In this document: positions 69 through 61,092 of the stretch, in pieces
Layout: each line of letters begins with the position of its first letter
Position numbering within the stretch: position 1 is the stretch's first letter
Assembly: GCA_911728435.2 (NCBI GenBank)
Contig: OU452211.1
Span: 11,638,428 to 11,702,427 of the forward strand
Source of the DNA: Apoderus coryli
Taxonomy: Eukaryota > Arthropoda > Insecta > Coleoptera > Attelabidae
Length of the DNA: 64,000 nucleotides
Direction: 5' to 3'
Made by a program: the position numbers and the translations under genes
Notes under the pieces: generated by a model
Told to the model about the DNA's origin: nothing
Databases searched by the model: none
Seen by the model: the letters and a program-made list of their open reading frames with translations, nothing else

Positions 69-380
69 TTAAAATCCAATTCGATTTATTCCTAAGTCTG
101 AAGAAATATCACTGACGCTTACATGACGATTCGCTTCCACATACGCAAGAACGCTTATAATATTATCTTCACTGCTAACTGGACGTCTTCTGAGCGGGAC
201 TGGATCAACTCTTACACTTCCCGTTTCTCGTAAACGGACTGCTAACCGACGGAACACTTTTCTGCTATGGCGTCTTCGGTCAGGATATTTAGCAGCATAT
301 TCGCGTTCATTTATTTGTCTCCATGCATGGAAACTTCCCAATTTTGTTTCATGGGTATTTAGATCTACCTCTTTTAACAA
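69..380 (-). pseudogene. N-terminal relic of an IS630/DDE_3-type transposase (DUF4817-like helix-turn-helix)
   Basis: A 103-residue reading frame with the pattern of the N-terminal helix-turn-helix half of a large insect transposase family (HTH followed by DDE_3). Visible marks are AAKYPDRRRHSRKVFRRL, then RLRETGSV, then a second helical block EANRHVSVSDISSDLGIN. In intact relatives this region binds the terminal repeats. The catalytic DDE half is missing downstream, so it is a dead fragment. Related relics occur at 4110-4470, 18700-19490 and 61690-63289. Family assignment is from remembered motif order; I have not aligned it. Confidence 0.6.
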
Positions 381-2146
381 ATTTTATGAAAGCTCTGCAT
401 TTTGGTAATTTTAATGGATCTTTCATTATTTTTATTTGTTAAACTATCAGTTTAATAAAGTTTAAACCTATTTCTTTATTTCCCATGGCATTCTTGATCA
501 CGGAAAATTAAAGATACATGATTTTTCAACGAATTTTGGTGAACAACATTCTTTTGGCCATAACTCTCAAACGAATAACGATTTTCCTGTGCGGTTTTGG
601 ACTTTTTTGTTGCAAATTCAATTTACTTTGCATTTTGGTAAAATATTTGTATCATTCTATTTAAGTTTTTAAAGAAAAATCAAAAAAACCTTAGGCGATG
701 CAAATATCGCCATCTAGCGGAGCCCCAAAAAACAATTATGATTTGAAATCTTTTTTTTCTTCATCAGCAAGGCTTGAGTTCTTAAACAAAAATTAGATTG
801 ATTAATTCGTTTATGCCAAACCAAAGTTATACACATTATCATAGGTAAAATTTCGTCCTTCCCTGCTGCCTTTATTTCAAGCCGCACAATAAAAACTGTT
901 TCACCAAAAAGATGCCGAATCTCAGTAGCATTACTGTGGTAGTATTGTTTTTCTAACTTATATTGCGAAATTTTCAATAAAAATGCATTCAGACGGATCC
1001 ATATAGGAGATGACACCAACATTAGTTTCAAGCAAAAATAATTTTTGAAATAGTTTTCAAAACGTTTCGGAAAAGTATAAATTTGGTTAAATATTTGCTA
1101 TACCTAAGTATGTGAATTTTACCTTCCCATTCTTAGAGAAATTCTTGGATACGCTAATGAATATTTCTTGTAAGTGTAAAATTTTGCTTTTTTAAATAGT
1201 AAAACTTAACGATGAAATATAAATAACAAACTAGTCCGTTACACTGTTATAATATTATATCTACTTACATTTTTAATAACAAATTATTATAAATTGTATA
1301 TGTTATACTTAACACAATTGTTTTGTTAAATTACCGCTTTAAATAAGCAATATCCAATTACTATAATCATTGGAGTTATTAACTGTACTTAGATATACAT
1401 ATAGAAATCCCTTGATAAATTCACAACTGCCTGAGTTGTTACGAATAGATAGTATCGTTAGTTTCTCAACATCACTCTTGCAATTTAGTCCCAACTCCTA
1501 AAGTCCTGGAGATTATCCACTTGCAAGTACTTAAAGCATTTCTGAAAGCTCTCAATTCAAAGTTCAGTTCAGTAATAAACAAAAAACGTTCTCAAAATTC
1601 GTTTTCGTAAACAATAGTTGAATTAAACCTGTATGTAATTAAGACTTTGCTAGATTTTTAAATATCACCCAGCATTTAAAATTATAGTTTGCGCAGTTAT
1701 TTTTCATTTAAATACGAGTATGTACAATGAGAACTAGAAAATCTTAACAAGTATTTACTTTGTATCAGTAAAAAGGAATTTAATGGCATAAATTTTACTT
1801 TATTTGTGATTTTAATTCGACAAGGAGAAACAACAACAAGTACCGATGAAAGTTTTTATAAAAGCGGATGCTGCCAAATGAAGATAAGTAGAATTAGAGG
1901 TGAAATTGTATGCGATACCACAGTATATGCACAATGGTAATTGTGAAGAGGTTACAGACACAGGTATATCACGATTTTGTTTACAATAATGTATTTATAT
2001 TTATGTTGTTGAGAGTTTTCTTAATTTTAGTTGCCTCTATCAACACAAAGTTACCTTATAATACGAGTATATTTAAATAAACGATAATTTACAAAACCAT
2101 AAAATTATTTAAGTACCTATCTAATATACAAAAATAAAATATAGAA
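381..2146. other. AT-rich intergenic stretch, no gene seen
   Basis: No reading frame here has recognisable protein features or a splice-consistent exon chain. The short frames are AT-rich and low in complexity. The part next to 2147 is presumably the 3' untranslated region of the Osiris gene that ends there. Confidence 0.5.
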
Positions 2147-5100: not shown

Positions 5101-5531
5101 TGTTCATGAGTTAATTCCAGTTTTACTTTAGGCAAATTCTTTGGTATAAGCTGATATGTATAAGATTTCCTCGTATGCACATAATAACATAATCTCTTTG
5201 GATATATTTAATTAAGTTTTAATAACAGTATTCAGCAAATTTCAAACAAATAATAATGGTCTACGATATTCATGCTTTTCATATCGAGAGCATAGCATAA
5301 TATAATATACTGCTATGTAAGATATTCCTTAAATTAATATTATAATATGACGATACCATCTAAATTGAAAATACAAAGACGAATTTAATTAAATCTCGAT
5401 TAGCTACTTACCCTTGATATTAAACATTGTCGGAACACTTCTCCCATAGGAGCTTCATTAGCAGCTGAAACCATACCATTTAAAACAATTCTTGCGAAGA
5501 AAATTAATGTGTTTATAACATTGAACTTCAT
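2147..5531 (-). CDS. Osiris family protein (DUF1676), five exons, complete
   Basis: Coding exons on the minus strand: 5531-5412, 3738-3566, 3103-2919, 2708-2447, 2327-2147. They total 921 nt (306 residues), every junction is GT/AG and the frame is kept throughout. Residues 1-24 are a signal peptide. The paired cysteines are C36 (EVFRQCLISR) and C48 (MGHCLGVGAI). The DUF1676 core includes LYPGLYMRMAPSISSNGVLE. A long hydrophobic segment follows at about residues 168-211 (VLPLLMGFKF then ALIAKKIVFISKLALL), and the tail has DTQAIYDRS close to the family's AQxLAY-type motif. Osiris proteins act in cuticle-secreting epithelia, probably in endosomal or apical membranes. The intron 2 acceptor (3105/3104) was chosen because the nearer TAG acceptor puts a stop in frame. 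I cannot assign an Osi number. Intron 1 carries a transposon relic. Confidence 0.88.
3478..3516 (-). other. Hammerhead-ribozyme-like foldback (degenerate)
   Basis: Read on the minus strand: CTGAAGA, one unpaired A, a 5-bp stem GCTGA/TCAGC around an 8-nt loop, then AAAAC where the hammerhead core has GAAA. It lies in intron 2 of the Osiris gene. A sister copy with the intact GAAAC is at 33453-33494. Such blocks are carried by Penelope-like elements and other retroposons. The extra base before the stem and the lost G argue against cleavage by this copy. Confidence 0.45.
3856..3912. repeat. Imperfect inverted repeat (hairpin)
   Basis: A left arm at 3856-3878 and a right arm at 3891-3912 are complementary over about 22 bp with one bulge and one mismatch. 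They enclose a 12-nt loop, in intron 1 of the Osiris gene. It could be the remnant of a small foldback element. No coding content. Confidence 0.6.
4110..4470 (-). pseudogene. Internally deleted DDE_3-type transposase relic
   Basis: Minus-strand translation gives HLKAYKIQITQELKPADYH, the linker between the helix-turn-helix and DDE halves in this family. After a short gap comes CDLSPFEFFLWPY, matching the usual SPDLTPCDFFLWGY block around the last catalytic residue. The middle of the catalytic domain is missing, so an internal deletion is inferred. Stops and frame changes are present. It lies inside intron 1 of the Osiris gene on the same strand. Confidence 0.55.
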
Positions 5532-5628
5532 TTTCTCTATATTATTTTATCACCCGTTCAGAGTACCTAAAGACTATATTCATTCCGAAAATTTTTTGAC
5601 TTAAACAAAGGAACGAGCAGTTTTATTA

Positions 5629-5634
5629 TTTATA
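5629..5634 (-). promoter_or_regulatory. TATA box of the Osiris gene at 2147-5531
   Basis: TATAAA on the minus strand, 98 bp upstream of the start codon. This leaves room for a TSS about 30 bp downstream and a 5' UTR of roughly 70 nt. Position and sequence only; no initiator was confirmed. Confidence 0.5.
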
Positions 5635-6132
5635 AACTTTGACGAACGTCATGTTTCAGTGAATTTAGTGAAGTTTCCAGTGAAAGTTCCTACCACTATT
5701 CGCTTAGTAATCATTAATTAATTGCGAAAATAATAATAGTCCATTGTTTTGTGTAAAATTGTCTTTGTTTGATGTAGAGATGGTTCACACGATGTCAAGT
5801 AAAATTACTTTTTTTACATCCTACCATCATTATACGGGCTGTCCGAATTGATTATCTTATTAGGTATTACTCGTGTGGACACAATAACAGCGGTTTATTA
5901 TTGTAAACTAAATTTTTTTTTTAAATTTTCGAATCACTCCAATAACTGCAAGTACCTATGTGTATTAAGGTGACCGAAGATAGATAGAGATAGATATATT
6001 TCTTCACCATCTTATGTTACATAACATGTATAGTACGTCATAAAAGAACAAAAATTAAACAATCCAAGTTACAGCAACAAAGAAAGGCTTACAAACAAAT
6101 TAAAATAGCAACAACATAAAACAAACTAAAAT

Positions 6133-7539
6133 CTAAAAAAATCTTACAATATCGCTTCTGAAATACTCCTCAAAGGTATAAAAAGCTTGAGATATCAAAA
6201 ATGATTTAATACATTTGGTAAATTGGACTTCACCAAGGTTCTTTATGTGAGACGGCAGCTTATTATAAAATTTGACACAATAATAGTCAGAACCTTTCCT
6301 AGTCCTCAATAGGCGGTGAAATTCAGGCAATATGTCATTGTGATTTCGCGTACCATAATTATGCATATCAGAGTGTAGAGTGAAATGCGAGGCATTGGTT
6401 CGAATGTAGCCAAGACAGTTTAAGATGTACAAGGAAGGCAAAGTAAGTAGTCCGTGTTCAACAAAATACTTTTTACAGCAGTCACGCCAACCGAGCCCCA
6501 ACATTGTACGTAAACATCTCCTCTGTAGCTTGAAGATTTTCATTGCATGAGAACTATGTCCCCAGTTCAAAATACCATACGACATACGGGAAACAAAATA
6601 ACCATGATATACCGTCAACAGACTGGCGATTGAAACAATCTGCGCAAGCCTTCTGATCAGATATATGACCCTGGACAGCGAGCACCCAAGTTCTCGAACA
6701 TGACTCTCCCAGGTTAATTTAGGATCAAGATGAGCCCCAAGGAACTTCACGCGAACATCGCTCTGAAGATCGATAGGCGCAGAACGCAATGTAAAGTTCA
6801 TGCTCTGACTTTTAGCCTGATTCAAGCTCAGTTCATTTGCCAGAAACCAATTGCCTATGTCAGTCTCAACAGCATTAACCAATTCCCCTAAAGGGTCGTG
6901 TGGTCGATATCTAATCAGACTAGTTGTGTCGTCAGCAAAGAGGATTATATTGGACTCGTCTTGAAATTTGTATAAATCATTTACGTATATTAAAAACAAT
7001 AAAGGTCCCAAAACCGACCCCTGGGGCACACCCCGTCCAACCCTTCGTCTCTCCGAGTATCGTCCCCCATACAAAACGTGCTGAAAACGATCGCTGAGAT
7101 AAGAGCCAACCAAGGCAACACTGTCAACATCAAAGTTATAGTAAGAGAGTTTCTGAAGAAGTATCTCGTGTGAGACACAGTCAAAAGCCTTAGTGAGGTC
7201 ATAAAAGGAAGCAGCAAAGGTGTCACAGCCCCGCTCCATGCCATCCGAAACATATTCCAAAAGGTTATTAATTGCAAGAGTAGTAGATCTCTTATTACGA
7301 AAGCCATATTGACCTTGCATAAAGAGATTATTTGCTTCAAAATATTCAGTTATTTGATTTTTAATAATAGACTCAAAGATTTTCGAAAAAATTGGCAAGA
7401 TCGATATTGGTCGATAGTTACTGGGATCATCAACCGATCCTTTATTTTTGTAGATTGGAATAACCCTTGCGTCCTTCAAGACCGCCGGAAATACAGCGTC
7501 ACCAATGCAATGGTTTATCAACTTAGTAAGCGGCACCAC
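6133..7539 (-). pseudogene. Reverse transcriptase domain of the truncated non-LTR element
   Basis: 468 residues. RT blocks in order: VIPIYKNKGSVDDPSNYRPISILP, QGQYGFRNKRST, FYDLTKAFDCVSHEILL, GVPQGSVLGPLLFLIYVNDL and the catalytic ILFADDTTSL, followed by a thumb and the C-terminal region usual in this group. All catalytic aspartates that I can identify are present. No RNase H domain is visible. The apparent start at 7539 is not a real start: the frame runs on from the endonuclease across one stop codon. Confidence 0.85.
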
Positions 7540-7581
7540 TAGCAGATTCTTTAAAGTCCCAATAATCCTAACATTATAAGC

Positions 7582-8712
7582 TCATAACAATCCGAGCTTT
7601 TTGTGTTTTTCACGTACTTCATTAAATGTTACCGTTCTCAAACTAAATCCAGCAGCTCTAGTGGGAGACATATATTTCTCAAAAGTGACCGATGTGGCTG
7701 GTAGCTGTTTTATGATATCATCAGCCGCAGTTGTAAAGTAATCATTTAAAATATGCGCAGTCAAGTTCTCAGCTATCCCGAGATTTGGAGTTGATTCCCT
7801 ATCCTTGACCAGTCTCCACACAGCAGCAGGCCTATTAATAGCGGATGCAATATACTCCTCATAAGCCCTTCTTTTGGCCTTAGAAAGTTCAGCTCGATTT
7901 TGTTTTTTATAGTGTCTCAAGGCGACTTTAGATACAGACTGAGAATCCGATTTATGAATCAAATGCATGGTGCATAGCAGATCTCTCATCCTGCGCAAAT
8001 CATCGCTGAACCAATTTATGCGACCCAGCGCTGATCCAGCAGTGACTGTTTTAGATTTAAGAGGAAAACAACTTTCAGCTGTATTTGCAATGACATTAGT
8101 AAACGTTAGAAATCTACTATCAATGCTTATATTTTTATCATCGATAAAGTCCCAATTAATATTCTCGATTCGATTGTACAAGTTAAAAAGTCCGTATTGA
8201 GTTATGGGTCTGTAACTAATTTTTGCAACAGGCTCCGTCGGGGAAGTGCGCCCTTCAAAGGTGAAAGAAATGCCATCGTGATCGGACAGATGATGTAAAT
8301 TAAAAGGTTTGAATGTTGTGGGGTTAACATTTATATTTGTGAATACATTATCCAGACACGCACTACCTCGAGCTGGAAAAGACACAGAGCCATGCAAGCC
8401 ATAAGCCCGAAAAAAATCACACAGGTCGGCCGCTCTTGGATCAGCCGTTTCAAAATGGACATTAAAGTCTCCCGTGACAATGACACTCTGGGACAAATTT
8501 ATACTCTCCAGTATCTTAGCCATAATCTCAAAAAACCGACAGAGATCTCTATTTGGCGATCTATAAATAGTGACAATGTGGGTAGGAAAGGTTTTTAGGA
8601 AAATTCCCGCAGCCTCACAGTTCACCTCTTCCGAATTTCCGGAGATATTCAGAACTCGGTACTCAATATTGTTTTTTAGGTATATTCCTACACCTCCATG
8701 AAGATATGCCAT
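7582..8712 (-). pseudogene. APE endonuclease domain of the truncated non-LTR element
   Basis: 376 residues. Endonuclease marks are HGGVGIYLKNNIEYRV, SVIVTGDFNVHFETAD (the catalytic GDFN) and HHLSDHDGISFTF (the catalytic SDH). The first endonuclease strands are missing, so the apparent ATG at 8712 lies close to the truncation point and is not the original start. The linker to the RT follows (INWFSDDLRRMRDLL, the conserved post-endonuclease motif). It ends at a single TGA. Confidence 0.82.
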
Positions 8713-8715
8713 TCG

Positions 8716-10126
8716 TCAGAAAATCATATGAAAAGTAGATTTATTTTATAGTCATTTTCAACATGGTTTTTCACAATAATTTCAAAAGAGAACAGGAAAT
8801 TTTGAACATGTTTGTAAGTAGAATCCTTGAGTCTCCTTGCCATTTAACATTCTTGAAAGGGATGCACCTCACCTTACAATATCCTATCAATATTTTTCAA
8901 AAATCTCACAATAAGTTTTCAGCAAGAATGGTGCCTCAGACTTGAGTTAGAGTTGCTGATAAGAGAGCGGTTGAGTTAAAACGCTGTATTTTTGCATTAC
9001 GATAGGTAAAATGTCTGTATATCTTAACTTAAAAACTTTGAGGATTTAGGTTTATTACTGCTATAGAATTATGCGACACCACAATAGATCTAGATAACTA
9101 CTATGAATTAATGTCCTTTACAGCAATTTCATACACATTTGGGGGTTACTAATACCATACCATCTTTAGCAATAAATTACTGTGCATGCATGTCTTCCTG
9201 TAATTTGCAACTGCGGTTGTTTTCGTACTCGCATGTCATTGACCAATCTCTGGATTGTATCACACAATCACGTACAGACATATAGAAGCTTTAGTTTAAC
9301 AAGTTGATATGTAACTGTGACCGCCAATCAATAAAGTGCTGAAGTGCTTGTGGAAATTTTGTGTAATTTGTAGAAGAACAATGGAACATTTTAGAGCACC
9401 ATAACATGTGATCGATTTTACACAGCATCACTTTCTTTACAGAATTTAATATATCGACTAACAGTTGTATATACAGAGGAATGCGTTGTAAATTTTAGAA
9501 AGCTTGAATATGATGAAAATTGAATTTGATTTCCTCAACAAGCAAATTAACCGTTAAACTTCAACGACTTCTAATTAAATTTAATATTCCCAGGGAACAA
9601 AATAAAATAAAAAAATGTCGAAATTGAAATTGTAGCTGACAATATTTAAAGTTTATAAATGTTTATAATATAACCCTTCATAATATCATTGTCCTGCCTA
9701 AATTATGCCCCATTTGCTTGATATTTTATCGAATTTATGCCTGGATGACTTTTCGTCCTTAAATGGTTTAGAATTTACAGCAGGAACTGCTGTTCTGACT
9801 TCGAAATAATTATCTATAAAACCGTCTACTTACTGACACAAATTACAAATGCTTAAACTTTATATAGTTAAATTTAAAACATCTAGAAAGTAATGCATTT
9901 TCAATTAAATTATTATCAATTAAGTTTAAGTAAGCAACTATAAAATGTAATTTGTTACTTATATTTTCACTAATAAAAGTTTATTTAAGTATATCAGTGA
10001 CTTTAAGTAGGTGCAATGTCACCGAAGGAAATTAATTATACATATAGCGCCGTACTGATTTTGACTTCTATTAAATAATTCTTTAACCATATTAACTTAG
10101 CAGTAGCGGATCTCAAAAACTTATTC
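8716..10126. other. Intergenic stretch, no gene seen
   Basis: No splice-consistent exon chain, conserved domain or repeat boundary could be supported. The sequence is AT-rich with short frames only. Confidence 0.45.
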
Positions 10127-11700
10127 ATATAATAATAATAATAAAGGACTTTATTAAAGGGCGAGTTTCAGTACAGTGGCAGATGTCACTGTTCTGTTCA
10201 GCTAACCCTGAAAATATAACATAATGTTACAAACAAAAAAATTTGCTACCAAAGTACAATCATTATAATATTTTTTGAAACATACAATAATAATAACATA
10301 CAATTATAAAATAGACAATAAAAAACTAGGTACAACTCAAAGCTCATTAATCCATTCAAAAAAAAAGTACAATAAATGAACGTATCTAACTCAAATTTGA
10401 TTTACAAATTAGCATCTTATGTAATTTAATTCTAAATAAATTTTTTGGTAATGTTCTTAAATCAGAGAGTTCATTCATGTATTTCGCTATCATATAAAAG
10501 AAAGATCGTTTACACATTTCCGTAGAGTGAACAGGTGGGGTAAGGGCATGTTTGTGACGCACATTTATATTGTGAACACGCACATATTATTATTATTATT
10601 ATTATTATTTATATTGTGAACATCTGTGCAGTATCTTATTCTCTGGTACAAATATGGTGGAGATTTGTCACACAAAATTTTGTGAAAACGACATACAGAA
10701 TTATAGTATCTTCGGTCTTCCATGTTTAGCCATCTAATCGCAGACAAAGTGTGAGATATCCTTTGAAATTTCCGTATTCCGAAGATCAGGCGAAGACACA
10801 AATTCTGTAAACGGGATTTTGAGATCTGCGTAATGCATGGAGCGTAGATGACATCGCAGTAGTTAAGTTGTGATAAGACTAAAGCCTCGCATAATTTTGC
10901 TTTTATAGGAACACTCAGCACAGAGCGGTGCTGAAATATTAATTTAAGATTCATATATCCAATTTGGATGCGTTTTCAAATATACTCCTCATATCTGAGG
11001 TTCTGATCCATTAAGAGTCCCAGATTTCTCACTACGGTCCTAAATTCAACTGGTTTCCCCTCCAAACTCAAACCGTCCTTATAGAGCTCAAGAAATGTCT
11101 GTCTGTCCCCTCTTCTACCGAATAAATTGCCAACTGTCTTATCGGGATTGAGTTTTAAGCAATGCTCTCGCGAGAAAGGAGAAGGTCCACACAAATCCGC
11201 ATTAAAAGCTGCAATTGCCTGAGGAGCCTCATCAAGAGTGAATGACAGATACATCTGTGTATCGTCAGCGTAGTAATGCTGTTGGCATGATATAAAAGCA
11301 GATGGAAAATTTGAGCTGTACAAAGTGAACAAGAGCGGACCCAGTATCGATCCTTGTAGAACTCCCTTACTAATTTTTTAAAAATAGAAGACAATTTACT
11401 TTTGTAAGTGACTGCTTGTGATCTCTCATCAAGATAATCAGTAAAAAGTCTTAATGACGAATCCGATAACCCGACATATCTTAATATCGACTTCATCAGG
11501 CTGTGGTCAAGCGTGTCAAATGCCTTAGAAAAATCAGCAAGGATCAACACCGTCAACTTTCCCCTGTTCGTGGCTTCCAAAATGTCGTCAGTAATATTTA
11601 AACGGGCTGAGACACAGTCATAACCCGGTCTAAATCCTGATTGTACGCTTAGAATTACACTTTTCTTATTAAGGTAAGAGCGCAGCTGGCCTTCAATTAA
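10127..11700 (-). mobile_element. Decayed non-LTR reverse transcriptase (CR1/L2- or Jockey-like)
   Basis: Minus strand. From 5' to 3': QSGFRPGYDCVSARLN, LTVLILADFSKAFDTLDHSLM, then after a frameshift HYYADDTQMYLSF (catalytic YADD) and CLKLNPDKT. After more shifts come the C-terminal blocks LNYCDVIYAPC and PYLYQRIRY. The coding region is split over at least four frames, so it is dead. The 3' end is a (TTA)n tail at about 10127-10144. The YADDTQ..CLKLNP pattern is commonest in CR1/L2-type elements. A 44-bp insertion interrupts it (see 10563-10622). Confidence 0.8.
10563..10622. repeat. 16-bp direct repeat flanking a (TTA)n-tailed insert
   Basis: The same 16-mer, ATTTATATTGTGAACA, occurs at 10563-10578 and 10607-10622. 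Between them are a few unique bases and a (TTA)n run. This is what a minimal target-primed insertion of a TTA-tailed retroposon would leave. The net 44 bp shift the frame of the older RT relic. Confidence 0.7.
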
Positions 11701-11704
11701 TTAA

Positions 11705-12110
11705 TATATATACTAAGAACTTCATAGTTAACAAATCGAAAGCAATTTGCATCCTATATTGGATTTATTCCAATAATTACATCAGGTGATCCTCAGGGTT
11801 CGAAACTTGGTCCTCTAATGTGACTTTTGTATATCAAAGATCTTGACCAGTGAATTTTGGTATGAAATTGCTCCAGCTTAATCGCTGAGATTAACATCAA
11901 AGTGTTTTTGTAATTGGAGTTACCAAAGTTTTAACAAAGTCAAAAAGCTCCAAGAGTGATTAAATTATCTGACATGATGGAGGGTTTTTCCTCAAAACTT
12001 TTACAAACATGTAGTTCTAAGTACAGTAAGAATGCTATTTGTGACATTTTAAATAAGTAGGATATGCTAAATGGCAGTTTTACTATAAATGAAAATACCT
12101 ATAATCTAAA
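11705..12110 (+). pseudogene. Small reverse transcriptase fragment
   Basis: Plus-strand translation around 11785-11860 reads SGDPQGSKLGPLM, a stop, then LLYIKDLDQ. This matches the RT block usually written as GVPQGSxLGPLLFxLYINDL. About 40 nt later a degenerate LIAEINIKVFL sits where FADDIKVF is expected. Heavily mutated, no boundaries seen. Confidence 0.5.
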
Positions 12111-12311
12111 AAAGAAGCAATAATTAAAATACTTGTAGCAAAATTAGGACCAATTTTTGTTTGTGTTCTAATTCATTTAACTTAATGTTATCTGATTTGC
12201 TGTCATGTTTGTGTCATGTTACGCTACTGTAAATTACCTTCGTACTAAATTAGTTTAATTTTATTTTCATCTGCCCTACTAATGCATATAACTTCATATA
12301 AACATCAATTC

Positions 12312-12318
12312 TATAAAA
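12312..12318 (+). promoter_or_regulatory. TATA box of the plus-strand Osiris gene
   Basis: TATAAAA 75 bp upstream of the start codon at 12393, leaving a TSS near 12342 and a short 5' UTR. Spacing is as expected; no experimental support. Confidence 0.5.
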
Positions 12319-12392
12319 GCTTTTTTATCATAATTTTACCTCTACATTTAACTTTAAACTAGGCAACTAAACAGACAGTTTGTAAAAGAAAA

Positions 12393-15300
12393 ATGTTACT
12401 TCTCAAATTAGCTATAACATTATTCATTGTTTCCAAAACAGTTAAAAGTGATGAATACGTTAACGAACTATTCAAAAACTGCTTCATAACAAAACGGCCA
12501 TACTATTGCGTCAATTACAAATTAGCCAAATTCATTGATGACTTGGTTAAGTCCGGCGAACAACATCAAATTACCAGTGCAATAAAGCTAATGAAATACA
12601 GAAATAGAAACAATAGCCCTTTAAATAATAGTAGTAATAACCAACAAGCCTTATTCCCAGTGCCGCGATATTTTTTCGGTGATTCCCCGTGGGATAAGTT
12701 GTTAAAGTTTGTGCAAAGGAAAGCTATTAGTTTCATGAATAGTCATGCGATCGCCTGGGAGATGCCTGAGGGAGTTGAGGTGTTTGACGGAAGGGATTTC
12801 AAGGATAATGGTATACAGGATAAATCAGGTAAATAGAGTTATAAGAGAACAGTCTATATAAGCGTTTAGTAAGTATAATTTAATTTATTGTGAATGTGAC
12901 TCTGCTCCTGCTGCATTTATCTAGCAAATTAATTATTGGGTGTTTTTGTTGTGTTTTGTTGCTCAGATAAAATCAATTGTTTGCCACCAGGATATATTTG
13001 GACGTCCTCTTGATTCTTACCCATGCAGAAAATACCTGATTGAACATTTTTGTAATCGAAACGAACAACGCATTTCATTTTAGACTCAATATTTGTCCTT
13101 GAAGGTTTTCACTATGTTGTTAGATACCTTAACTATTGTGCTTTTCCAGATCTTGAGAATTTCCTTGCTCTTCATTGATGGCCTGAGATTTTCAGGAAAG
13201 TAATGAACGTTTGATTGATTAATTGATATCCGCATATATAAATTTACCAAATTACCTTAGACCGCTACAGAAAACTTTATAATTGGAAAAGTTAAGATTA
13301 GTGGTATATACAAAATCCATGGATTTTTTTTAATTTCCTCCAAAGTAAGTAAGTTTGTTCCTCAAATCACGTCAGGTTTTCTCTATCACTATACAAATAA
13401 AAGAAATTTCTAATGGTGTTTTCTAGTTTTTAAAATTCTATTCAGCCCTCGACTACTAAATCAAATTATTAAGTTTCTGGATTGAGGATTTTGAGAGCAG
13501 TGAGTACAGCTATATACAGTGAATCCAAATATCGTACACTGAAATAAGGTGAATTAGAAACCAAGGCAGTGAGTTTCAAAGTGTGATATTCTGATGAAAT
13601 TAAGTCCATGTCTCAAACTCCCTCAATTCAGTATTCAGCATATTTTTTATTCTAAATTAGAGTTTGTGCACCACATGAGGCTTAAAACATTTGCTTAGTA
13701 TTTAAGAGTAAACAACTTTATTAGTTTTGTGTATGACATAGAGAGCACGTTTTTGGAATTTTCTGTATTATTCTGTTTTTATCACGGATTCATATTTATA
13801 TCCTACCTACATCTGTTTTCAATCCATTTTAAATATTTTTGCAGTTGTCAATGATATGTGCAACGTAGTTTGTCATACGAATTATGTTATCGAGCTTTAA
13901 ATGAAAGCTGGCATTAAACACAATTTGCGTCAAATTTATTTTAATAAACAACTATTTTTTTAGTGGAAAGCAAAATTAGAAGGTTTTAGTAATTTTCTTT
14001 TCTCACAAACCCTTTAGGAAATTTCAAAACGTAACACCGCGGCATTTCCTTCTTCTTCTGGTGATAAAGAAATAATCCTTAAAGTAATCTAGATGACTAA
14101 TAGCTTTCTAATCGGCCCTGTTCATTTAGATTTTAATTTTTGCCAACCCTTCAGTGCTCCCATTTAAGTAAAGTGTTCAATGAAAATATATTCAATGTAA
14201 ATTATAAATTTTTATTAAATTTTGTATTGAAATATAGTAACAACTTTTTAACTAAAAATCGCGTGAATTTCGCAGTAGTAAATTGTTTCAAGTTTTAGTG
14301 AAAATATTTTGTGAGCAAAAAAAAAAATGGTGATTTTATATAGCAGCAACCAAAAGCAGTTAAGTTAAAAATTTGTTATTATATCATAATATCCAAATAA
14401 TCATACAGTATAATGCAAATGAAACTTGATACTTAAGCAAAATCTAACCTGTGTTGTACAAACTTATTCATACACCTAAGGTATTTGCAATATACTGTGA
14501 AAATCTTGTATTTAAATTATTGCAAACAATAGTTTTAACACATTTATTTGTTTGGTATTTTCAGAAAGCCGTGGCGCAAGAGGGAAAAAGAAGAAAATCT
14601 TTTTCATTTCTCTCATAATTATGGCGAAATTACTAAAAACCAAAATATTGCTTGGCATTGTGTTATTCGTATTGGTATCGATCAAAATGGTGATACTGTT
14701 CGTCGCGTTAGTTTTTCCATCAATTTTAAGCAGCTTGAAGCAGGCCTGTGAGAAACAGCATTTGTATCAGACTGGTGAAGAACATCACACAGGATGGTTT
14801 GGGTAAATATTTTTGTTTTACACAGGAATGTCGTGTTAGCAACATATACAAATAAACATTGACTGAGGGAGTTTGAATATTAACCAAACTAGGTACTGGG
14901 GAGAGCAGCAATATTATTATTCTCCTTTATTGCCAAAATTAGTCACGCAAAAAATAATTTGAGAAGGCCTCAATTATCCTTTAACTTTAAAAAAAATTTC
15001 TTCAATATAAAATGCAATGTCGTTTTTCCATATAATGTTGAATTTTTTTAAAGATTCCCCCAAACACTCTTTTTTTCTGCCATGGTGAAATTTTTGCTGC
15101 TTAATGTGGAGCAGAAGAAATATTTATCGATAAGCAGTTATTTGGGAATTTATAATTATTGATTTATAGCTTTTTGCCAGTCAATTCCATTTATTTTTCA
15201 CTAGTGGTCATCACCACTCTCTATCAACATGATGAAACTCTCATCTTTTTTGGAAAATACGCTGAACCCTGATCTACCTAAAGCTTTGCACTCAGTTTGG

Positions 15301-15600
15301 ATGTGCCAAACCGTTTTTTCTTCTATTGTGTGCATATTCTGGATTCTCCTCTAATCACTTTATGGAAAGAGTGTTCAGTGAAAACAATAGTAGAATAGGA
15401 CGTTTGCTTTATTGAGATGAAAATAATAATAGAGCTGAGCTCTTTTATAGGGATTAGACTTTTTAAGTGAAGTTGCTCTATCTGTGAGCTTCACCAAATA
15501 AAATTAAATATTCAATAATACAAAAATAAGAAACTAATTTAACTTTTCTATTCCAGATAATCCCTATACGACGCAATATAAAAATGAGTTATGTCAATAG
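12393..15600 (+). CDS. Osiris family protein, first exon plus first transmembrane cassette
   Basis: Exon 1 is 12393-12828 and ends CAG|GTAAAT in phase 1. It encodes a signal peptide (residues 1-19), the paired cysteines (NCFITKRPYYCVNYKLAKF, family position) and a DUF1676-like region ending FDGRDFKDNGIQDKSG. Exon 2 starts at 14565 after TTTTCAG: a basic block (RGARGKKKK) then a long hydrophobic hairpin (MAKLLKTKILLGIVLFVLV to VFPSILSSLKQACEKQ). The best in-frame ending uses the donor at 14775 and a short terminal exon 15557-15600 (NPYTTQYKNELCQ), giving 229 residues. Alternatively exon 2 reads on to the stop at 14804-14806, after HTGWFG. Two further homologous transmembrane exons lie downstream in the same phase (18064, 19618) and no other signal-peptide exon is visible for them. 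Confidence 0.75.
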
Positions 15601-16039
15601 CGGAGAAGATTTTTCCCATCTAAATTTTAATGGAAATACAAAAGAAGAAATTAGTTTATTTATTGTAGTTGGTGTATTTCCTTTGTTGAATATATGGTTC
15701 CTAAATTATTATTGAAGTCTTGTTTTTCCATTTCTTGCAGTACTATGGATAATAGATGAAATAATAAACTGTCTGTTTTTTGTTAAATATATAATTTACT
15801 AGCGGTTTTAATTAAAAACTACTGAACGTTAAACGTAAATTGCTTTAGAGATGTCCGAAAGCAATTATTTGAGTTTGAAACTACCAGGCTAAAATCCAAT
15901 TACCATGTATTTTATTATTTATCAAAAGTGTTATATTGAGACTGTAAATATGACTGCACAATTCCAGGAAAATTAAATAACACCATGGAACTTTGATCCA
16001 CTTTTGGCAAAACAGTATAGATTTATCATACTTAAATCT

Positions 16040-17840
16040 AATTCATCAACTTATTATTGCCTGGTAGTATGACTTACAATGGTAATAATATTGATGATCC
16101 GCAGGAGCTTGTCAATAAATTTGCGGAATTTTTCAATACATCATACGTTGCATCTCAGGCATTTGATATTGATCAGGGATTGTTTGATGTTGTGAATGTG
16201 TCTCATTTGCCGGATCGTGTGATTACTGAGACGGAGGTCTATGGAGCTTTGAGAAGGTTAAAAGCTAAATTTACATCGGGTCCTGATGGTATACCATCTT
16301 TTGTAATTAGGGATTGTGCCACTGTGTTTGCTAAACCATTGTGTACAATATTCAATGTTTCTTTGCGATCGTGTAGTTTCCCCTCTGATTGGAAATCTTC
16401 TAGAGTGACGCCGGTTCATAAGAAGGGAGATAAACAGGATATTTCAAATTATAGACCAATTTCCATACAGTCGTGTTTTTCTAAAGTTTTTGAATTTGTG
16501 CTCCATGATATTATTATGAGTCATGTTAGGCGTCAGATTTCATCGGTACAACATGGCTTTTTTCCCGGTCGTTCTACGTCAACTAATTTATTGGTTTTAA
16601 CACAGTTTTTAACTGAGCGACTTGATAACGGGGGTCAGGTAGATGTGGTCTACACTGATTTTTCTAAAGCCTTTGATAGACTTGATCATGGTGTTCTACT
16701 GCGTAAACTGTGTCGTTATGGACTATCTTATAATTTACTGCTGCTTTTGAAGTCGTATCTGAAGGATAGATTTCAGTATGTGGAAAGTCGAGGATTTCGT
16801 TCCGCAAATTTTAAAGTGTCATCTGGTGTTCCCCAGGGCTCTGTCCTTGGACCATTGTTGTTCCTGTGTTTTATCGATGATATTTCTAGTGGCTTGACAA
16901 ATAGTTCGTTATTATATGCTGACGACTTCAAAGTATATTCTGTCATTAATAGTACTGAAGATTGTTCTCGTCTTCAGGACGATTTAAATGTTGTATATGA
17001 GTGGTGTGTCCGTAATAATCTTTATCTGAATATTGATAAATGTTTTAGTGTTTCCTATACACGGAAAATAAACCCTGTCAAATTTTCATATTGTATAAAT
17101 AATAGTCCATTAACAACGTGTGATGAGTTTAAAGATTTAGGTGTTTGGTTTGATGGTAAACTGAGCTTTACTAATCATTACAATAATATAGTTTCAGCAT
17201 CCTATAGATCTCTGGGTTTTATTGTGCGCAATTCGAAAGAGTTTGTGACACCTCAAACTCTCATTGTTCTTTTCAACGCATTTGTCAGATCTAAACTGGA
17301 ATATGCATCTGTAGTATGGAATCCTATGTATGCCATACATATGAATAATATTGAACGCATCCAGCGTCGTTTTGCCAAGTTGCTGTGGTTTCGGGTTGAT
17401 GGGGTTTATCCATCCATTGGGTTTCCTCATGATATTCTGTTAAACCGTTTTAATCTAGTGTCATTAAATACTCGGAGAGAATATTCCGCTCTAGTATTGC
17501 TCTTTAAGATTATTAATGGACTTCTTGACTGTCCAGAGTTTTTAAGCCAGATTCCTTTGTGTGTCCCAAATTTACGTACACGTAATAACGGAATCGTATT
17601 TTACGTTCCGGCCCCGCGTACTAATTTGTTGTTGCGTTCCCCTTTACATTTTATGTGCCATACTTGTAACTCTGTGTCCGAGCAAATTGATATTTTTAAT
17701 TCAACTTTGTCTTGTATAAAAAATATATTTCTTAGAATATAAATTTAGTGTTAGATATTAAGAATTTATTGTAATTTTTCCTGCCCTTTAATTGGATTAT
17801 TTATCTGTCTGGGCAGTGTATCCTAAATAAATAAATAAAC
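16040..17840 (+). mobile_element. 5'-truncated non-LTR retrotransposon, intact RT frame
   Basis: An open frame (16057-17742, up to 561 codons) starts mid-protein with no proper ATG, in the linker between endonuclease and RT. RT blocks: SSRVTPVHKKGDKQDISNYRPIS, QHGFFPGRSTSTNLL, VYTDFSKAFDRLDHGVLL, GVPQGSVLGPLLFLCFIDDI and SSLLYADDFKVYSV (catalytic YADD). The 3' UTR is about 85 nt and ends in an AAAT/TAAA repeat at about 17824-17840. The uninterrupted RT suggests a fairly young insertion. It sits between two transmembrane exons of the plus-strand Osiris locus, same strand. A fragment of the same family lies at 59712-60129. Confidence 0.85.
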
Positions 17841-18063
17841 TTATCGTAGCAAACAACGACCCTGAAATTCAAAAAAAAAATTATAAGCAAAATATATTGT
17901 ATGATTTCTACTGATGACTAGGATGTTTTGCATTGGAGTAAGTAAATTTTAAACTGTTACTGTAAGTCGTACGACCACTAACCGTTGGCAATATCTTACC
18001 AAAGCATCCAAAATATTTTTCATCTAAATTCTGGCGACTGAAAAATAACATTCTCTGTTTTAG

Positions 18064-18368
18064 ATACATCATTTCAAAAACGAATCCTTTACCATCCTGT
18101 TTATAATAGAAATTACAATGTAAATAACAACTCCAGCGGTAATAATTTGAGGAATACCTCTACATTTCCTACACAGCATAAAATGGCAATAATGTCAGTT
18201 ATGTCAATCACAAATGCTACAGATAGTGCAAATAACATAATGTCAAATGGGAAAATGCAAAACACCATGTATTTAATGCCTATAATGATGATTGCAAAAA
18301 CATTTATTGGGATTACAGCAGCATTTATGTTTTTACTGTTCTATGCTGTTGGACAGATGTCCATGTGA
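18064..18368 (+). CDS. Second Osiris-like transmembrane exon (possibly alternative or decaying)
   Basis: An open frame runs from the acceptor TGTTTTAG at 18063 to TGA at 18366-18368. It is entered in phase 1, the phase in which the exon at 12393-12828 ends. It encodes an Asn-rich linker and then YLMPIMMIAKTFIGITAAFM and FLLFYAVGQMSM. Alignment by eye with the exons at 14565 and 19618 shows the same hydrophobic start (IMAK / MIAK). This copy stops before the Pro...Lys-x-x-Cys-x-Lys-Gln end that the other two share. It is either a short alternative terminal exon or a truncated pseudo-exon. No first exon of its own is visible between 15600 and 18064. Confidence 0.5.
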
Positions 18369-18699
18369 CAATTTTTGTTTTTAGGTAATTTTTTTTTAAA
18401 TATAGTTTCACCTTCCTTCAAAAACTGATGATGCGAAAAACAAAATCTGTTGACAAGTTACAGTTTCATCAAGGATGATCCATGTAAAATCCTCACAGCG
18501 TGTGCTCAACTCATTTGTAACTCTGTTCTATATCGCGGAAACTCGTTATTCGCCATTTTCGAAAACAAGTTAAGCAGAGGAACTTATTTCACTCCTTTTA
18601 ATTAAGAGCACGTAACTATGCATTGGTAAAGGTATCATAGACGTGATGCCCAAAATTCAGTTTGAAATAAACTTCAAGGCGCATATTATGTACCGAGAG

Positions 18700-19490
18700 G
18701 TCTACAATTGAGACTGCATACAAACACAAAGAGGATCTGAGCAGTTCAAACAGCTTATCCTGTAACGTGCGTGTACAGCCTTACAATGAAGGCAACACAA
18801 CATTTTTGGGCAAGCGCTTATTGCGCCAGAAAATATTGACACTGCTAAGTACAGACTAGTGGAAACTGATTGGCGGGGATAAATAAACGGTTTTTTTACA
18901 GTAAAGGCTGCAGGAAACCGGGGAATTTTGTTAAAAAACATATCGTAATCCTATAGGCATACTCAACGAAGAGATAAAAAAAAATAACCATGGTTTTCGG
19001 AGCACAAATTCAATGAGTTTATGGTCCTTGCACAATGTGCATGGGGATCATCATGCTGGAAGAAATATCATCGTTAATGTAAGGTCCAATGAATTGTCCT
19101 CTAAAAATTCCTATCCACACAATGAAGCTAAATCTTCCTTGTTGTCTATTTTCGACAGTCACATGGAGATTTTCTTGGTACCACGTGTAATTATTAAACC
19201 GATTAAATATGTCCCTACTATTAATCAAAGCTTCGTCGGTCCAAATACAATTTAATGCGAAATTTGGTTGATTCAAAAACGAGTTCTGTGATCCAAATCC
19301 CCAGGGAGAAGATGATGGATTTTGCGGGTTGGATAAGGCTTATATTATATATATATGTCTCTCTATTTCAAGTTTTCTTGTGGAACTTTTACCATTATTT
19401 TCAAATAAAGTTCCCAATACGGTTAGAGTTTTTACTTCATTTTCGTTTTGAATTTCTTAATTTTGCTCTGGGTTTGTTGGAGTGTTTTGG
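18700..19490 (-). pseudogene. DDE_3-type transposase relic
   Basis: Minus-strand translation gives KIHHLLPGDLDHRTRF, then CIWTDEALINSRDIFNRFNN (first catalytic Asp in TDEA), then FIVWIGIFRGQFIGPYIND. These are the usual consecutive blocks of the DUF4817/DDE_3 transposase family. The C-terminal part toward 18700 is only weakly recognisable. Frameshifts and stops make it dead. It lies between two transmembrane exons of the plus-strand Osiris locus, in the opposite orientation. Confidence 0.65.
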
Positions 19491-19617
19491 CGCCTGAGCA
19501 TTTCTATGTCACAATCAAGCATGTTGAACTTTTAGAAATTTTCATACAATTTTAAAACGTAACAATTAAATAATTGTGTATTTTGTAAACTAACATATAT
19601 TTTTGTTTTTATTTTAG

Positions 19618-20575
19618 CCTTAGATATACAGTCAAAAACCAAAAAGGACAAACACCAAGAAAAAGACTTCATCCATTTTTCCATCCCAATTGCAATGTTA
19701 ACACTAGCATTTTTCGCTAACATTGGATCAGGAATTCTATTATTTGGTTTATTATTTCTCAAAAAATTGCTTATTATTGGAGGATTTTGGTTACCATATA
19801 TGGCGTATAGTGTAAAGAAAACATGTCTAAAACAAGGACTGATAAAGGAGTTGTGGAATGGATTATGGGGAAGGAATGATAACTTCAGTAATTATACTCG
19901 TAATGAACCAGGACAACTTGATAATGGATATTATAGTAAAAGTGATACTGTGTGGTCATATTTTCCAGAATATAATATAAATGAGACTTTAGCTATCTTT
20001 AACAGTAAGTCTGAATTTATTTCTTTTTCAAATATAGTTTGAAGTTCTTGAGATGATCACAGCATGTGTACACTCAGGTACAGACAAATAAACAGTGTTA
20101 AAATTTAAAGGAAACAATCGAAAAACCGCTTCTTTACTTATGTTCCGATTTTTTGGATAGAAGAAGAAAAGTCTATCCAAATTAATACACATTATTGAGA
20201 TTTTTGAATATTTCTATCAACTAGGTTCAGATTTATTTCCAACACATGGGTTTTTGAACATTTCGCTTCTCTTTTCACTTAGGATTGAGGCTCATAATCA
20301 TTATATCAAAATTCTTTTCTATCAACAACGTTGTTAAAAAAATATAATATGAGAATTACTTGCAATGATATGCTTTAATTTTTAAAAGTTTTTAAATTAA
20401 ATTACAAAAATTAATTATACGTTCACCTAGATAGTCCCAGACAAAACCTATATGATAGGAACATAAATTGATGTCTTCTGCCCCTGAATGTATATTTTGT
20501 CTCTGGGTTTTAAAAGCAAATTTTATATTTTTTGTAGATACAAACCATCCCACGTTGGAATATCAATACCACTAA
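19618..20575 (+). CDS. Third Osiris-like transmembrane exon with terminal exon
   Basis: Exon 19618-20004 follows TATTTTAG and is entered in phase 1. It ends at A|GTAAGT, again in phase 1, and joins exon 20538-20575 (after TTTGTAG), which ends in TAA. An AATAAA lies near 20628. The protein part has a basic, Lys-rich start and a hydrophobic hairpin (ILLFGLLFLKKLLIIGG). It then has LPYMAYSVKKTCLKQ, which matches FPSILSSLKQACEKQ of the exon at 14565 with the same spacing of Pro, Lys, Cys and Lys-Gln. A Trp/Asn/Tyr-rich tail follows. There is no signal peptide or first exon of its own upstream to 18368. It joins in frame to the exon at 12393-12828. Confidence 0.6.
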
Positions 20576-20599
20576 GATGTACAACAAAAGTAAAATGGA

Positions 20600-21145
20600 A
20601 TTTCAATTTGTGTTGTGTTTTTATTAAAAATAAATAAATAAATTATAAATAAATAGAATAAATAATCTAATCTAGCCCTTATTGTGAAAATTTACTGGTA
20701 AAGTAATAAAAATGAATTTGTAATTATTAAAATTCTAATTGTATAATTTTGTTTCCTATCTACCCTAGTAGATGTCGTCATTGCATAAATAAATAAGAAA
20801 AAAATAATGCAAATACATCGGGAACAGGTTTGTATAAAACTAGTCAAGTTTTATTAACCATGCCCATATATAAGTTTAATTAAAAAAAATAATTACTAAT
20901 TAGTGAATTCTGACATCAATCTATCTTATTAGGTCATTCACCTGTTACATAGTAAAGTTTGTTTTCTCAAAATATGCAACTGAATTTAAAGCAGAACTAG
21001 ATTCACCTGTTGCCGACGCTCTATAATATAGAGTAAATCTGTCTCACATTATCAAAGACTTAAACCTCGATAAGAAGTCTCTACAGAAAAATAACCCAAC
21101 CACCACACTCCCAGAAGTTTCATTAGAAGGTATGACTACAATTTA
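20600..21145. other. 3' flank and spacer, no gene seen
   Basis: AT-rich sequence with repeated AATAAA-like words just after the last Osiris exon, then a spacer up to the convergent gene that ends at 21146. No reading frame can be supported. Confidence 0.5.
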
Positions 21146-24100
21146 CTACTTAATATTTCTAGCTTGTACTAATTTATTTATCTCATTATATGTTGTGAGC
21201 AATGCAGGACTAGCTTGGTTTGTTGTTAGACGTGAACATCCCTTATGTGCAAGGCATTCCTCATCGTCTTGACCATCTTTGGCAGCTTTCATGTAGCGGA
21301 AGAATCGTAGAATCTCTGGGTTGTCTGATGATGGCTTCCGCAATTCATTGAGTTCTCTATAAATGGGAAGTCACATTAAAATATAATTCAGCTTTCAAGC
21401 TATGGAAGAGTTATGGACGAATGATGCAGCTTGTTTAGTGACCAAGCTTTTATGTTCCTTCATAACATAGTCAAGACCAAGCAATATTACCTACAGTTTC
21501 CATTCCTGGTAAAATTTTTAATGTAGTAAATTACCAAAAACCATTTGCATCTATATGTTATAACTCCACATTACCTGCTTAGTTGAGCTGAAACTAAATT
21601 GCTGTATGGTGCGTATTTAGCTGGATTTGCATACATCAGGCATACGAGGCGTTCCCTACACCTCTCTGTCTCTGGAGAATTCCCATCCTAAAATAATTAA
21701 CACACATAAAAAACGGAAAGACTGTTATTTATGGAATTCTCGAAAATAGATGGTTTACGTGTAGATAAAAAAATACCATCTATCAGCGTATATATAAAAT
21801 AGTAACAGAATTGTTGGCTAATTAATAAAACATTAGGTTTCTGCCTACTTTTCGACAGAACTCGTTTCAGTCAACTGATCAAAACTTGTATATTCCCAGA
21901 AACCAGTTGATTTTGTTGCCGATTCTGGAACTACTTCAAGTCCTATTGTTATAAAAACACAAACCTTATATTCCCTCAGAAATACGCACAAGGACAAGTG
22001 CACACTAATCAAAAAGGGATACCAGTGGGGTATTTGGCCAATTTAGCAAGACAAAATTATACAAGAAAGACACTAAGTGCAAAACAGGTTCTAACAGTAA
22101 GGTTGGTTGTATAATTACTAAAATTGGTAAATTAGCTAAGTTTTCTTACACAACGTAAATATACAGGGTGTCCTTGGCAAATATAACAAGAAAACATCTA
22201 GGAGAAAATATTAAATACAAAATAATTTTATAATGATCAAAAATATGGGTCAAAAAGATCATTAAAAAAACAAACAAACAGGGTGTTTTGTAATTTGGGG
22301 TGTTTCGTGTATGTAACTTGATTAAAACACTGGTTACGGTATTTACAAAATTAAATATTTAATTACAGAACTTAATATGAATTTCGTATATTGAAGTACA
22401 TTATTTACAATCATTACTAAACTTAAAATATGTATACAGTGTGGCACAAGATAAATGGTCGCCATAGTACCAGCAGACTAAATTAAAATATATATATACA
22501 GTGTGGCACAAGAACAATGATGGTCGCCACAAGCACAGATCTAGAAGAAAATCGAGTTACTAGATCTGTGGCCACAAGTGTACCAAACATTTTCACCACT
22601 TTAGAAAAATTCTAGGGGAAAGATATTAATTGAAAATTAGTTACGTTTTTTTTTTACAAATTTATCCATATACAGGGTGTTCCAATTCTGACACCAACAT
22701 ACAACTAGCTTAGTTCTAAAAAAAAATATGCAAACATAATCAGAGCCGCTAGGGGAGTTATTTGGCCTTTATCTTCTTCTTCGTTTGTTGTGTAAGATTT
22801 TTAATATTTTTTCCACGGGTAGCAATATTTTTTAAAACCTGTGCGGCATCTCTTTTTCCTGTAGACTGGAGCTGACTGTGTGTAGCAAATAAAATCTCAC
22901 TGCAGCTTACATTGCTTCTTAACTGTTCTGTTTTTCGCAATTTAGGCAATCACTTGCAAGCTGTCCATTTGCTTTTCATCTACGATTTAAAATAAGAAAA
23001 TTTTATTTTAACGTCTTTCATATCTTCTTCGGAATAATGGAATCGATTTTGCAGATGATGAAGAATAAAATCGTGGATATCCATATCAGTTTGTTCTCGC
23101 ATAATGTTGAATAACTCCCTTTAGTGATTAGAGTCACAAGTGATGGGTCTATAAAAAAAGATATATTGATGATGTTATAATCTATTCGAAACGTTAAAAC
23201 ATTTTTTTTATTTTAAATGAATATTTGCAATAAAAATATCCAACACTTTTATTGATAAGGTATTATTATTATTATTAGAGAAGTTTCAACTTTAGATTTT
23301 AAAGAATATTAAATCCAATGAGACAAAAAAATATGGCAACCTCTATTTTTGTATTAAAATAGACATAAACTATAATAGTTTTAAAAACAATTTATATCAA
23401 AATAATTTTCGATTTGCAAAATTTTTTTAATTATGTATTTCGAACATAGTGCATAAAAATAGTGATGATTTCTTGGACACAGCGTATTATTAGAATGCCG
23501 AATTCACTAAAAAACCGGACAAAACCGGATGAGAATTTCATTGAGCTTGAAAGCAGGATAACTATACTTCATTCTAAAGTAAAAATTATAGCTGGGACTC
23601 GCTTGGAGATATAACAAATTTCTTGCGGTTTTTTAAGTTCCTTATAAAAAGTAAGAAATAAAAACACTATTTTTGTCAAATATGATTATTAATAAAAGAA
23701 AAGTAAATAAAAGTGTACTTATGTACTATATATAACATAACTTACCTGAAAGACTAGATTCCATCATAAATTCTATTTAAAACAATGTCCAAGTACAAAA
23801 AAATTTTCACACAAAGACACACTTTATATAACGAAATACTAACTGAAACACATGCTCTTATATAAATAGTCAGATATACACTAACCCTATGCACCTATGG
23901 GTAAAAACAGAGGTCCAAAAAGAATATTTTATGGTTCTTTGTCTATATGGCTTTATGATAGGTACATTTACTACCCATTTCTTACAAATTTACAAAATTG
24001 AATTTTGGCGCGCTAAATTTGGCAACTACCCCACTGTGCGTCGCTATGCTCTCTGTAGAACATCACAAAAACAAATTAGAAGAGACTAGATATGTTCTGT

Positions 24101-25049: not shown

Positions 25050-25923
25050 TACGAGGGTTGGCTTTTATATTTCGAGATTAGAGAACAAAAACAAATATTA
25101 ATCATCAAAAATCACTTTATTGTTTTTCAAAATATTCCCCATGAAGATCTATACACTTTTGCAAGCGTTTGAACCAATTGTCGAAGCCGATGAGTGAGAG
25201 CTCGCATTGCCGTGGTGAAGAGTGATCCGTCTTCGGCGGTTGGTTTTCCTGATTTCTTGGAAGACAACTGGCAAACAAATAGTTGTGTACCACTCAGAAT
25301 TGACTGTTCTGCGTTGTTCTAGTGGTTCGGTTGCGACATGTCCAGTTGTGCCGAAAAAACAGGCGACCATTTGCTTGTAAGTGCTTCGTGCGCGAACAAC
25401 TTTTGTTGGATTTGGCTCATCTTGAAAAACCCATACAGTCGACTGCTGTTTACTTTCGGTCTCATACGTGTAAATCCACGATTCATCACCTGTCAAGATG
25501 TCATAGACGTGTTTCGAAGTACCGCGATCGTATTTTTTGAGCATTTCTTTCGACCAATCGACACGAGCCTTTTTTTGAGCGATTCACAAATTGTGTGGGA
25601 TACAACGCGAACAAATTTTTTTGACAGTCAAATGTTTATGCATTATTGAATGTATGCTGGTCCCACTAATGCCTAAGGTTGTCTCAATCTCTTGATAGGT
25701 CTCATGACGATCTTGCAATATCAGTTCGCGCACAGCATCAATGGTTTTCGGAACTGATTTTGAATCTTTTAAGTTACTGTAAACAACACAAATAGCGCTA
25801 GTATGTCAAAACGTTCTGAGTACGTATAACCTCAAAAATGTCCAACTTTACGATAGAGCTGTCAGTTGCCAGATTGCAACACCAGGGTTGCCAAATCCCG
25901 AAATATAAAAAGCTACCCTCGTA
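25050..25923 (-). mobile_element. Dead, internally deleted mariner transposon with both terminal repeats
   Basis: The terminal inverted repeats start CGAGGGTTGGCTTTTATATT at 25052 and are matched in inverse at 25921, with about 27 of 31 positions alike. TA dinucleotides flank both ends (25050-25051 and 25922-25923). The element is about 870 bp against roughly 1.3 kb for a full mariner. The minus-strand transposase remains: a helix-turn-helix (ETYQEIETTLGISGTSIHSI), then an in-frame stop, then TGDESWIYTYE with the first catalytic Asp. The second-Asp motif reads HHGNASSH where HHDNASSH is expected, so that Asp is lost. The C-terminal third is gone. The element cannot encode an active enzyme. 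Confidence 0.85.
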
Positions 25924-43162: not shown

Positions 43163-43301
43163 AGTGGGAAGTTCACAATTTTTAGTTTTTATTTTACCCT
43201 TTAAACACTACTTAGAGATAACGACAGTATATTCTAGTGTACTACCAGTATTATTCTGTTAAGTATTAAATCTGTTAAGCGGTTTTTGCGTTTTCGTGCA
43301 T

Positions 43302-45174: not shown

Positions 45175-61092
<15,918 letters not shown>

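What the first reader, a model, noticed from the sequence alone, without database searches (positions are those of the whole stretch)
12393..20575. One Osiris first exon followed by three homologous, same-phase transmembrane exons
Exon 12393-12828 ends in phase 1. Three downstream acceptors (14564, 18063, 19617) each open a hydrophobic exon that is in frame from phase 1. The exons at 14565 and 19618 share the ending Pro-x(8 or so)-Lys-x-x-Cys-x-Lys-Gln, so they look like exon duplicates. No second signal-peptide exon is visible between them. Either this is one Osiris gene with alternative membrane and C-terminal cassettes, which I do not know from this family, or it is a set of tandem genes that lost their first exons.
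Basis: partly seen in the sequence, partly recalled or inferred. Interest (0 to 1): 0.8.

Follow-up and report, generated by a model that had tools for sequence, protein, structure and literature searches.

The report
Osiris gene with duplicated membrane exons
A beetle gene of the insect-only Osiris family seems to have one front half but two related membrane-spanning back halves, which could be chosen between by RNA splicing or could be the remains of a second gene; only RNA data can decide.

Summary
The sequence features are real; the reading is only partly supported. Exon 12393-12828 ends in phase 1 at a strong donor, and acceptors at 14565 (A), 18064 (B) and 19618 (C) each open an in-frame hydrophobic exon. 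No other + strand phase-1 site in the window meets the same limits, which were set from these exons. Exon 1 plus A is a convincing Osiris protein (PF07898, 70.9 bits, above 10 of 10 shuffled joins). A and C are homologous (16 of 57 residues, no gaps; 3 of 4000 shuffles score as high). B is not shown to be homologous, so 'three' becomes two. Phase 1 before the membrane exon also occurs in both other Osiris genes of the window, so equal phase cannot separate cassettes from tandem genes. No second front exon was found, within limits. Best explanation: one Osiris front half with two homologous back halves (A; C plus tail exon 20538-20575), probably used as alternative last exons (confidence 0.45). 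A second gene that lost its front exon is the main rival. No transcript or orthologous locus could be checked.

The parts
12393..12828 (+). Exon 1: hydrophobic N-terminus, two Cys, first part of DUF1676; ends in phase 1
   Evidence: PF07898 37.8 bits alone, cut-off 24.3; donor in the top 0.67% of + strand GTs
14565..14806 (+). Exon A: basic block and membrane segment, stop TAA 14804-14806; candidate last exon
   Evidence: Join with exon 1 70.9 bits against 49.7-63.6 in 10 shuffled joins
15557..15600 (+). Possible tail exon of A (extent uncertain): from donors 14747 or 14774 it would add NPYTTQYKNELCQ and stop; from donor 14802 it stops at once
   Evidence: Acceptor in the top 0.69%; the three donors only in the top 3.3%, 3.3% and 5.0%; unproven
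16042..17742 (+). LINE reverse-transcriptase frame, 566 codons, inserted between A and B; not part of the gene
   Evidence: RVT_1, 99.5 bits
18064..18368 (+). Frame B: hydrophobic C-terminal end, stop; membership doubtful
   Evidence: Open from phase 1; no homology to A or C; weaker acceptor
19618..20004 (+). Exon C: membrane segment homologous to A, then a long tail
   Evidence: Alignment with A, 16 of 57 residues, 3 of 4000 shuffles as high; codon positions
20538..20575 (+). Exon D: short tail exon joined in phase 1 to C, stop
   Evidence: Acceptor in the top 0.75%; frame

Best explanation
This is a divergent Osiris gene on the + strand with one 5' half (exon 1: signal-like N-terminus, two Cys, start of DUF1676) and two homologous 3' halves: A, and C followed by tail exon D. 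The 3' halves arose by an old local duplication. The proposed working is alternative last exons: the phase-1 donor at 12828 is joined either to A, with cleavage and polyadenylation soon after, or past A to C and D. The two proteins would share the domain before the membrane and differ in membrane segment and tail. Shown: frames, splice-site rank, Osiris identity of exon 1 plus A, homology of A and C. Partly shown: absence of another first exon. Inferred: that the 12828-19618 junction is used, that the choice is regulated, and any difference in function. B is probably not part of it.
For: Frames and sites; exon 1 plus A is Osiris against shuffled controls; A and C homologous with codon positions 1 and 2 above shuffles and position 3 at chance, so both changed as coding sequence; C open over 128 codons, probability about 2e-4 for non-genic sequence at equilibrium; no DUF1676 match in 29 gap frames and no other signal-like single first exon; AATAAA 45 nt after the stop of A and within 60 nt after that of D.
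Against: No transcript seen. C does not raise the DUF1676 score beyond its shuffles (46.9 against 41.7-54.3) and matches no family alone. Equal phase is the family's usual phase here. A front half made of several small exons, as in the left-hand gene, would escape the search. Shah et al. 2012 judge a merged long Osiris 10 model to be a likely gene-prediction error and mention Osiris fragments elsewhere in the cluster, so tandem genes and relics are known look-alikes. AATAAA is common in this A+T-rich DNA.
Confidence: 0.45

Rival explanations
1. C and D are the back half of a second, tandem Osiris gene whose front exon was lost; C is now an orphan, still open because the loss is recent.
For: A and C are homologous but old copies (third codon position at chance); a LINE with an unbroken 566-codon frame lies in the interval; phase fits any Osiris back half; Osiris fragments are reported elsewhere in the cluster (PMC3284338).
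Against: C, its acceptor, its donor and D are all intact; the donor of exon 1 is in the right phase to serve it.
Confidence: 0.3
2. C and D belong to a complete second gene whose front exons are present but were not recognised, being several small or very divergent exons.
For: The left-hand Osiris gene has several exons before its membrane exon, the first ending in phase 0. The single-exon search would miss such a design, and my own N-terminal profile failed leave-one-out for exon 1.
Against: None of 29 open frames of 35 residues or more in the gap matches DUF1676; tblastn with exon 1 and with 10 beetle Osiris proteins gave no significant match there.
Confidence: 0.13
3. C and D form their own short gene from the internal ATG at 19695, with its own promoter.
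For: ATG 19695 is followed by a hydrophobic stretch and 103 codons to the donor.
Against: That stretch is the membrane segment homologous to A, and the good acceptor at 19618 would be unexplained.
Confidence: 0.06
4. About B alone, not exclusive with the others: B is a chance open frame or a decayed exon, not a cassette.
For: No homology with A, C or the neighbouring membrane exons; DUF1676 score of its join inside five shuffles (44.8 against 40.6-46.2); acceptor only in the top 6.4%.
Against: A frame like it appeared in only 3 of 600 simulated spans.
Confidence: 0.65

Closest known systems
Osiris family (PF07898, DUF1676), as defined in Shah et al. 2012, PMC3284338 (parts 1-3 of 4 of the text read)
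   Same: Hydrophobic N-terminus, two Cys, DUF1676, membrane segment, place in an Osiris cluster beside a neuropeptide-receptor gene
   Different: Two homologous membrane exons behind one front exon; no clear AQXLAY motif in either product
Drosophila Osi19-A and Osi19-B isoforms, PMC9870157 (passages seen)
   Same: More than one protein from an Osiris gene
   Different: They differ by nine residues, not by whole membrane and tail exons
Homologous terminal exons used with several poly(A) sites, one of three look-alike classes in Pillmann et al. 2011, PMC3228551 (12 of 44 passages seen)
   Same: Homologous 3' exons in one frame behind one donor
   Different: Use in transcripts is unproven here, and lengths differ (79 and 128 codons)

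Membership tests
Osiris | Hydrophobic N-terminus, likely signal peptide | tested here: met
   Mean hydropathy 2.46 over ten residues near the start of exon 1; no signal-peptide program was run
Osiris | Two-Cys region | tested here: met
   NCFITKRPYYC in exon 1, read from the translation
Osiris | DUF1676 domain | tested here: met
   Exon 1 alone 37.8 bits, with A 70.9, cut-off 24.3, above 10 of 10 shuffled joins; for C the gain is not above shuffles
Osiris | Membrane segment | tested here: met
   Best 19-residue hydropathy 3.08 in A, 2.16 in C, 2.07 in B
Osiris | AQXLAY motif and nearby Tyr | tested here: not met
   Read by eye: absent in the A product; C has Tyr residues and only NETLAIF. Shah et al. 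say the domains are in most, not all, members and are weak in Osiris 4, 13 and 21-23
Mutually exclusive internal exons | Homologous, similar length, same frame, flanked by further exons | tested here: not met
   A and C are homologous in one phase, but A holds a stop and the lengths differ
Alternative last exons | Transcripts joining one donor to either terminal exon | not testable with these tools
   No RNA data at hand

The most novel reading that the evidence does not exclude
One Osiris promoter and front exon serve two, or with B three, membrane-and-tail cassettes, so that a single Osiris gene makes proteins with the same domain before the membrane on different anchors: a layout I did not find described for this family, arisen by absorbing the back half of a tandem copy.
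Probability: 0.35. Interest if true: 0.6.

Novelty: new variant of a known kind. Interest (0 to 1): 0.4.

Why it matters
Osiris genes underlie the dose-sensitive Triplo-lethal locus of Drosophila, and their order is unusually conserved (PMC3284338). If one front exon serves two back halves, two members of a tandem family have merged into one gene with alternative last exons, and the part played by the membrane segment and tail could be tested within one gene. If C and D are a relic, it is an ordinary step in gene loss.

Tried and rejected
Homology of B: no signal. Equal phase as evidence for cassettes: set aside. DUF1676 gain from joining B or C: not above shuffles (the real C join included D, 286 residues, the controls did not, 274; the matched stretch ends before D). 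Codon usage: uninformative. A membrane profile from 9 of the 10 beetle proteins plus the window's own exon: no discrimination, A itself scored below 890 of 1000 shuffles, B and C were reached by 156 and 130 of 1000. My N-terminal profiles: failed leave-one-out for exon 1, so Pfam was used on 29 of the 31 gap frames listed; the two left out overlap exon A. Relatives: none in the protein collection for exon 1 plus A (148 candidates) or C (26); none in viral contigs for exon 1 and for the left-hand membrane exon or in genome contigs, which holds bacteria and archaea, for C. The 10 beetle hits show that the protein collection holds beetle Osiris proteins, but that search needs shared 5-residue words, so the absence of this gene is weak evidence. 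Repeats: 12 direct families, none marking the A-C duplication. Rfam: no match in 12000-21600. Solved structures: nothing below E 1 for exon 1 plus A. In print: seven searches of the open PMC library, seen as listings of at most 20 papers each, showed no title or abstract on alternative membrane exons of Osiris genes; PMC12825958 holds none of the words exon, isoform or splic.

Name of the left-hand gene: 4 of its 10 hits are named osiris 10 or 10a, while the published order NPFR1-Osi24-Osi2 would suggest Osi2. This gene could then be Osi11, published as running opposite to most others, or an extra inverted copy. Not resolved.

Full report
What was checked. Exon 1 (12393-12828) ends in phase 1 at ATCAG|GTAAAT. 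Acceptors at 14565, 18064 and 19618 each continue that frame: A for 79 further codons to a stop ending at 14806, B for 100 to 18368, C to a donor after 20004, then exon D from 20538 to a stop ending at 20575.

Is it more than chance? On the + strand of the window, phase-1 acceptors at least as good as B's with at least 79 open codons number 3: these three, all hydrophobic. The other five strand-and-phase classes hold 43 such sites, 6 of them hydrophobic; four of the six start within the frames of the receptor gene and one at the membrane exon of the left-hand Osiris gene. In 600 simulated spans of 5,996 nt, 11 had one or more such phase-1 hydrophobic sites, 1 had two or more, none had one like A or C, and 3 had one like B. 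The limits were chosen after seeing the exons and the splice weights are recalled approximations, so these numbers are a guide. Codon usage did not separate exon 1, A, B or C from random open frames.

What the pieces are. Exon 1 alone matches DUF1676 at 37.8 bits. With A the score is 70.9, above ten of ten controls, eight with A shuffled locally and two with only its part after the basic block shuffled (49.7 to 63.6). So exon 1 plus A is an Osiris protein. A alone scores 10.1 bits and B and C alone match nothing. Joined to exon 1, B and C give 44.8 and 46.9, but shuffled B gives 40.6-46.2 and shuffled C 41.7-54.3, five controls each: no evidence from that test.

A and C. They align without gaps over 57 residues with 16 identities, including P-x(6)-K-x-x-C-x-K-Q. 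3 of 4000 shuffles that keep the local hydrophobic pattern reach the score; ten exon pairs were tested, and no other pair was below 280 of 4000. Identity by codon position is 27, 38 and 17 of 57, against means of 17.2, 24.8 and 15.1 for local codon shuffles. The third position is at chance, so the duplication is old, and the match lies in the protein, not the DNA. Neither A nor C resembles the membrane exons of the neighbouring Osiris genes beyond shuffles, and B resembles none.

Surroundings. On the left, minus strand, about 2.2-5.5 kb, lies an Osiris gene whose 10 hits all carry PF07898 and come from beetles, the first two from the weevils Cylas (51%) and Anthonomus (52%); 4 of 10 are named osiris 10 or 10a. 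So the window is most likely from a beetle. On the right, minus strand, at 28-29.4 kb, lies another Osiris gene (joined model 32.8 bits). Further on is a rhodopsin-type receptor gene, minus strand: one of its five exons passes the 7tm_1 cut-off, three match below it and one has no match. Its best solved relatives include neuropeptide FF, cholecystokinin and neuropeptide Y receptors (best 60 of 325 shown). I take it for NPFR from recall. Shah et al. place NPFR1 between Osi1 and Osi24, so the right-hand Osiris gene is probably Osi24. In both neighbours the intron before the membrane exon is phase 1, so the equal phase of A and C is what tandem genes would show too.

Is there another front exon? 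Between 12000 and 19617 the ATG frames with a signal-like start and a phase-1 donor are exon 1 and two ATGs inside A (six ATG-donor pairs in all). That test sees single front exons only. Of 29 + strand frames of 35 residues or more in the gap, none matches DUF1676 at E up to 1. A LINE frame of 566 codons, unbroken and so probably young, lies between A and B.

How it may work. The simplest arrangement that uses all well-supported parts is alternative last exons: exon 1 to A with a poly(A) site soon after (AATAAA at 14851), or exon 1 past A to C and D. The products would share the domain before the membrane and differ in anchor and tail. A may have its own tail exon at 15557: it has a strong acceptor and reads NPYTTQYKNELCQ from donors 14747 or 14774, but stops at once from donor 14802. 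If real, A-15557 and C-D would be two matching back halves, the trace expected of an old tandem duplication whose second copy lost its front exon. Whether C is now served by exon 1 or is an orphan cannot be told from one genome. Pillmann et al. 2011 name three look-alikes: mutually exclusive exons, terminal exons with several poly(A) sites, and tandem duplicates (passages). The first fails here because A carries a stop and the lengths differ.

Limits. No transcripts, no other insect genome; the window's own genome was asked eight times without an answer. In checking this report I found no fact that required a change of odds.

Noticed in passing
48679-54369 (+): Three tandem papain-family cysteine protease genes (Peptidase_C1, 190.8-198.3 bits; cathepsin L-like by recall) lie, on the opposite strand, between two exons of the receptor gene (45.5 and 55.2 kb), so apparently inside its intron.
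   Followed up: partly
16042-17742 (+): Reverse-transcriptase frame of 566 codons without a stop inside the Osiris locus (RVT_1); a piece related to it lies at 59780-60087 on the other strand (67.8% over 329 nt).
   Followed up: partly
18702-19339 (-): Two open frames between B and C look to me, from recall, like a decayed transposase, but neither matches Pfam.
   Followed up: partly
25149-25583 (-): Partial mariner-type transposase frame (Transposase_1, 30.0 bits, E 4.9e-07), not part of the Osiris locus.
   Followed up: no
38851-43207 (-): Two long adjoining open frames (944 and 511 codons), by look a second retroelement with two frames; the 511-codon frame had no Pfam match.
   Followed up: no
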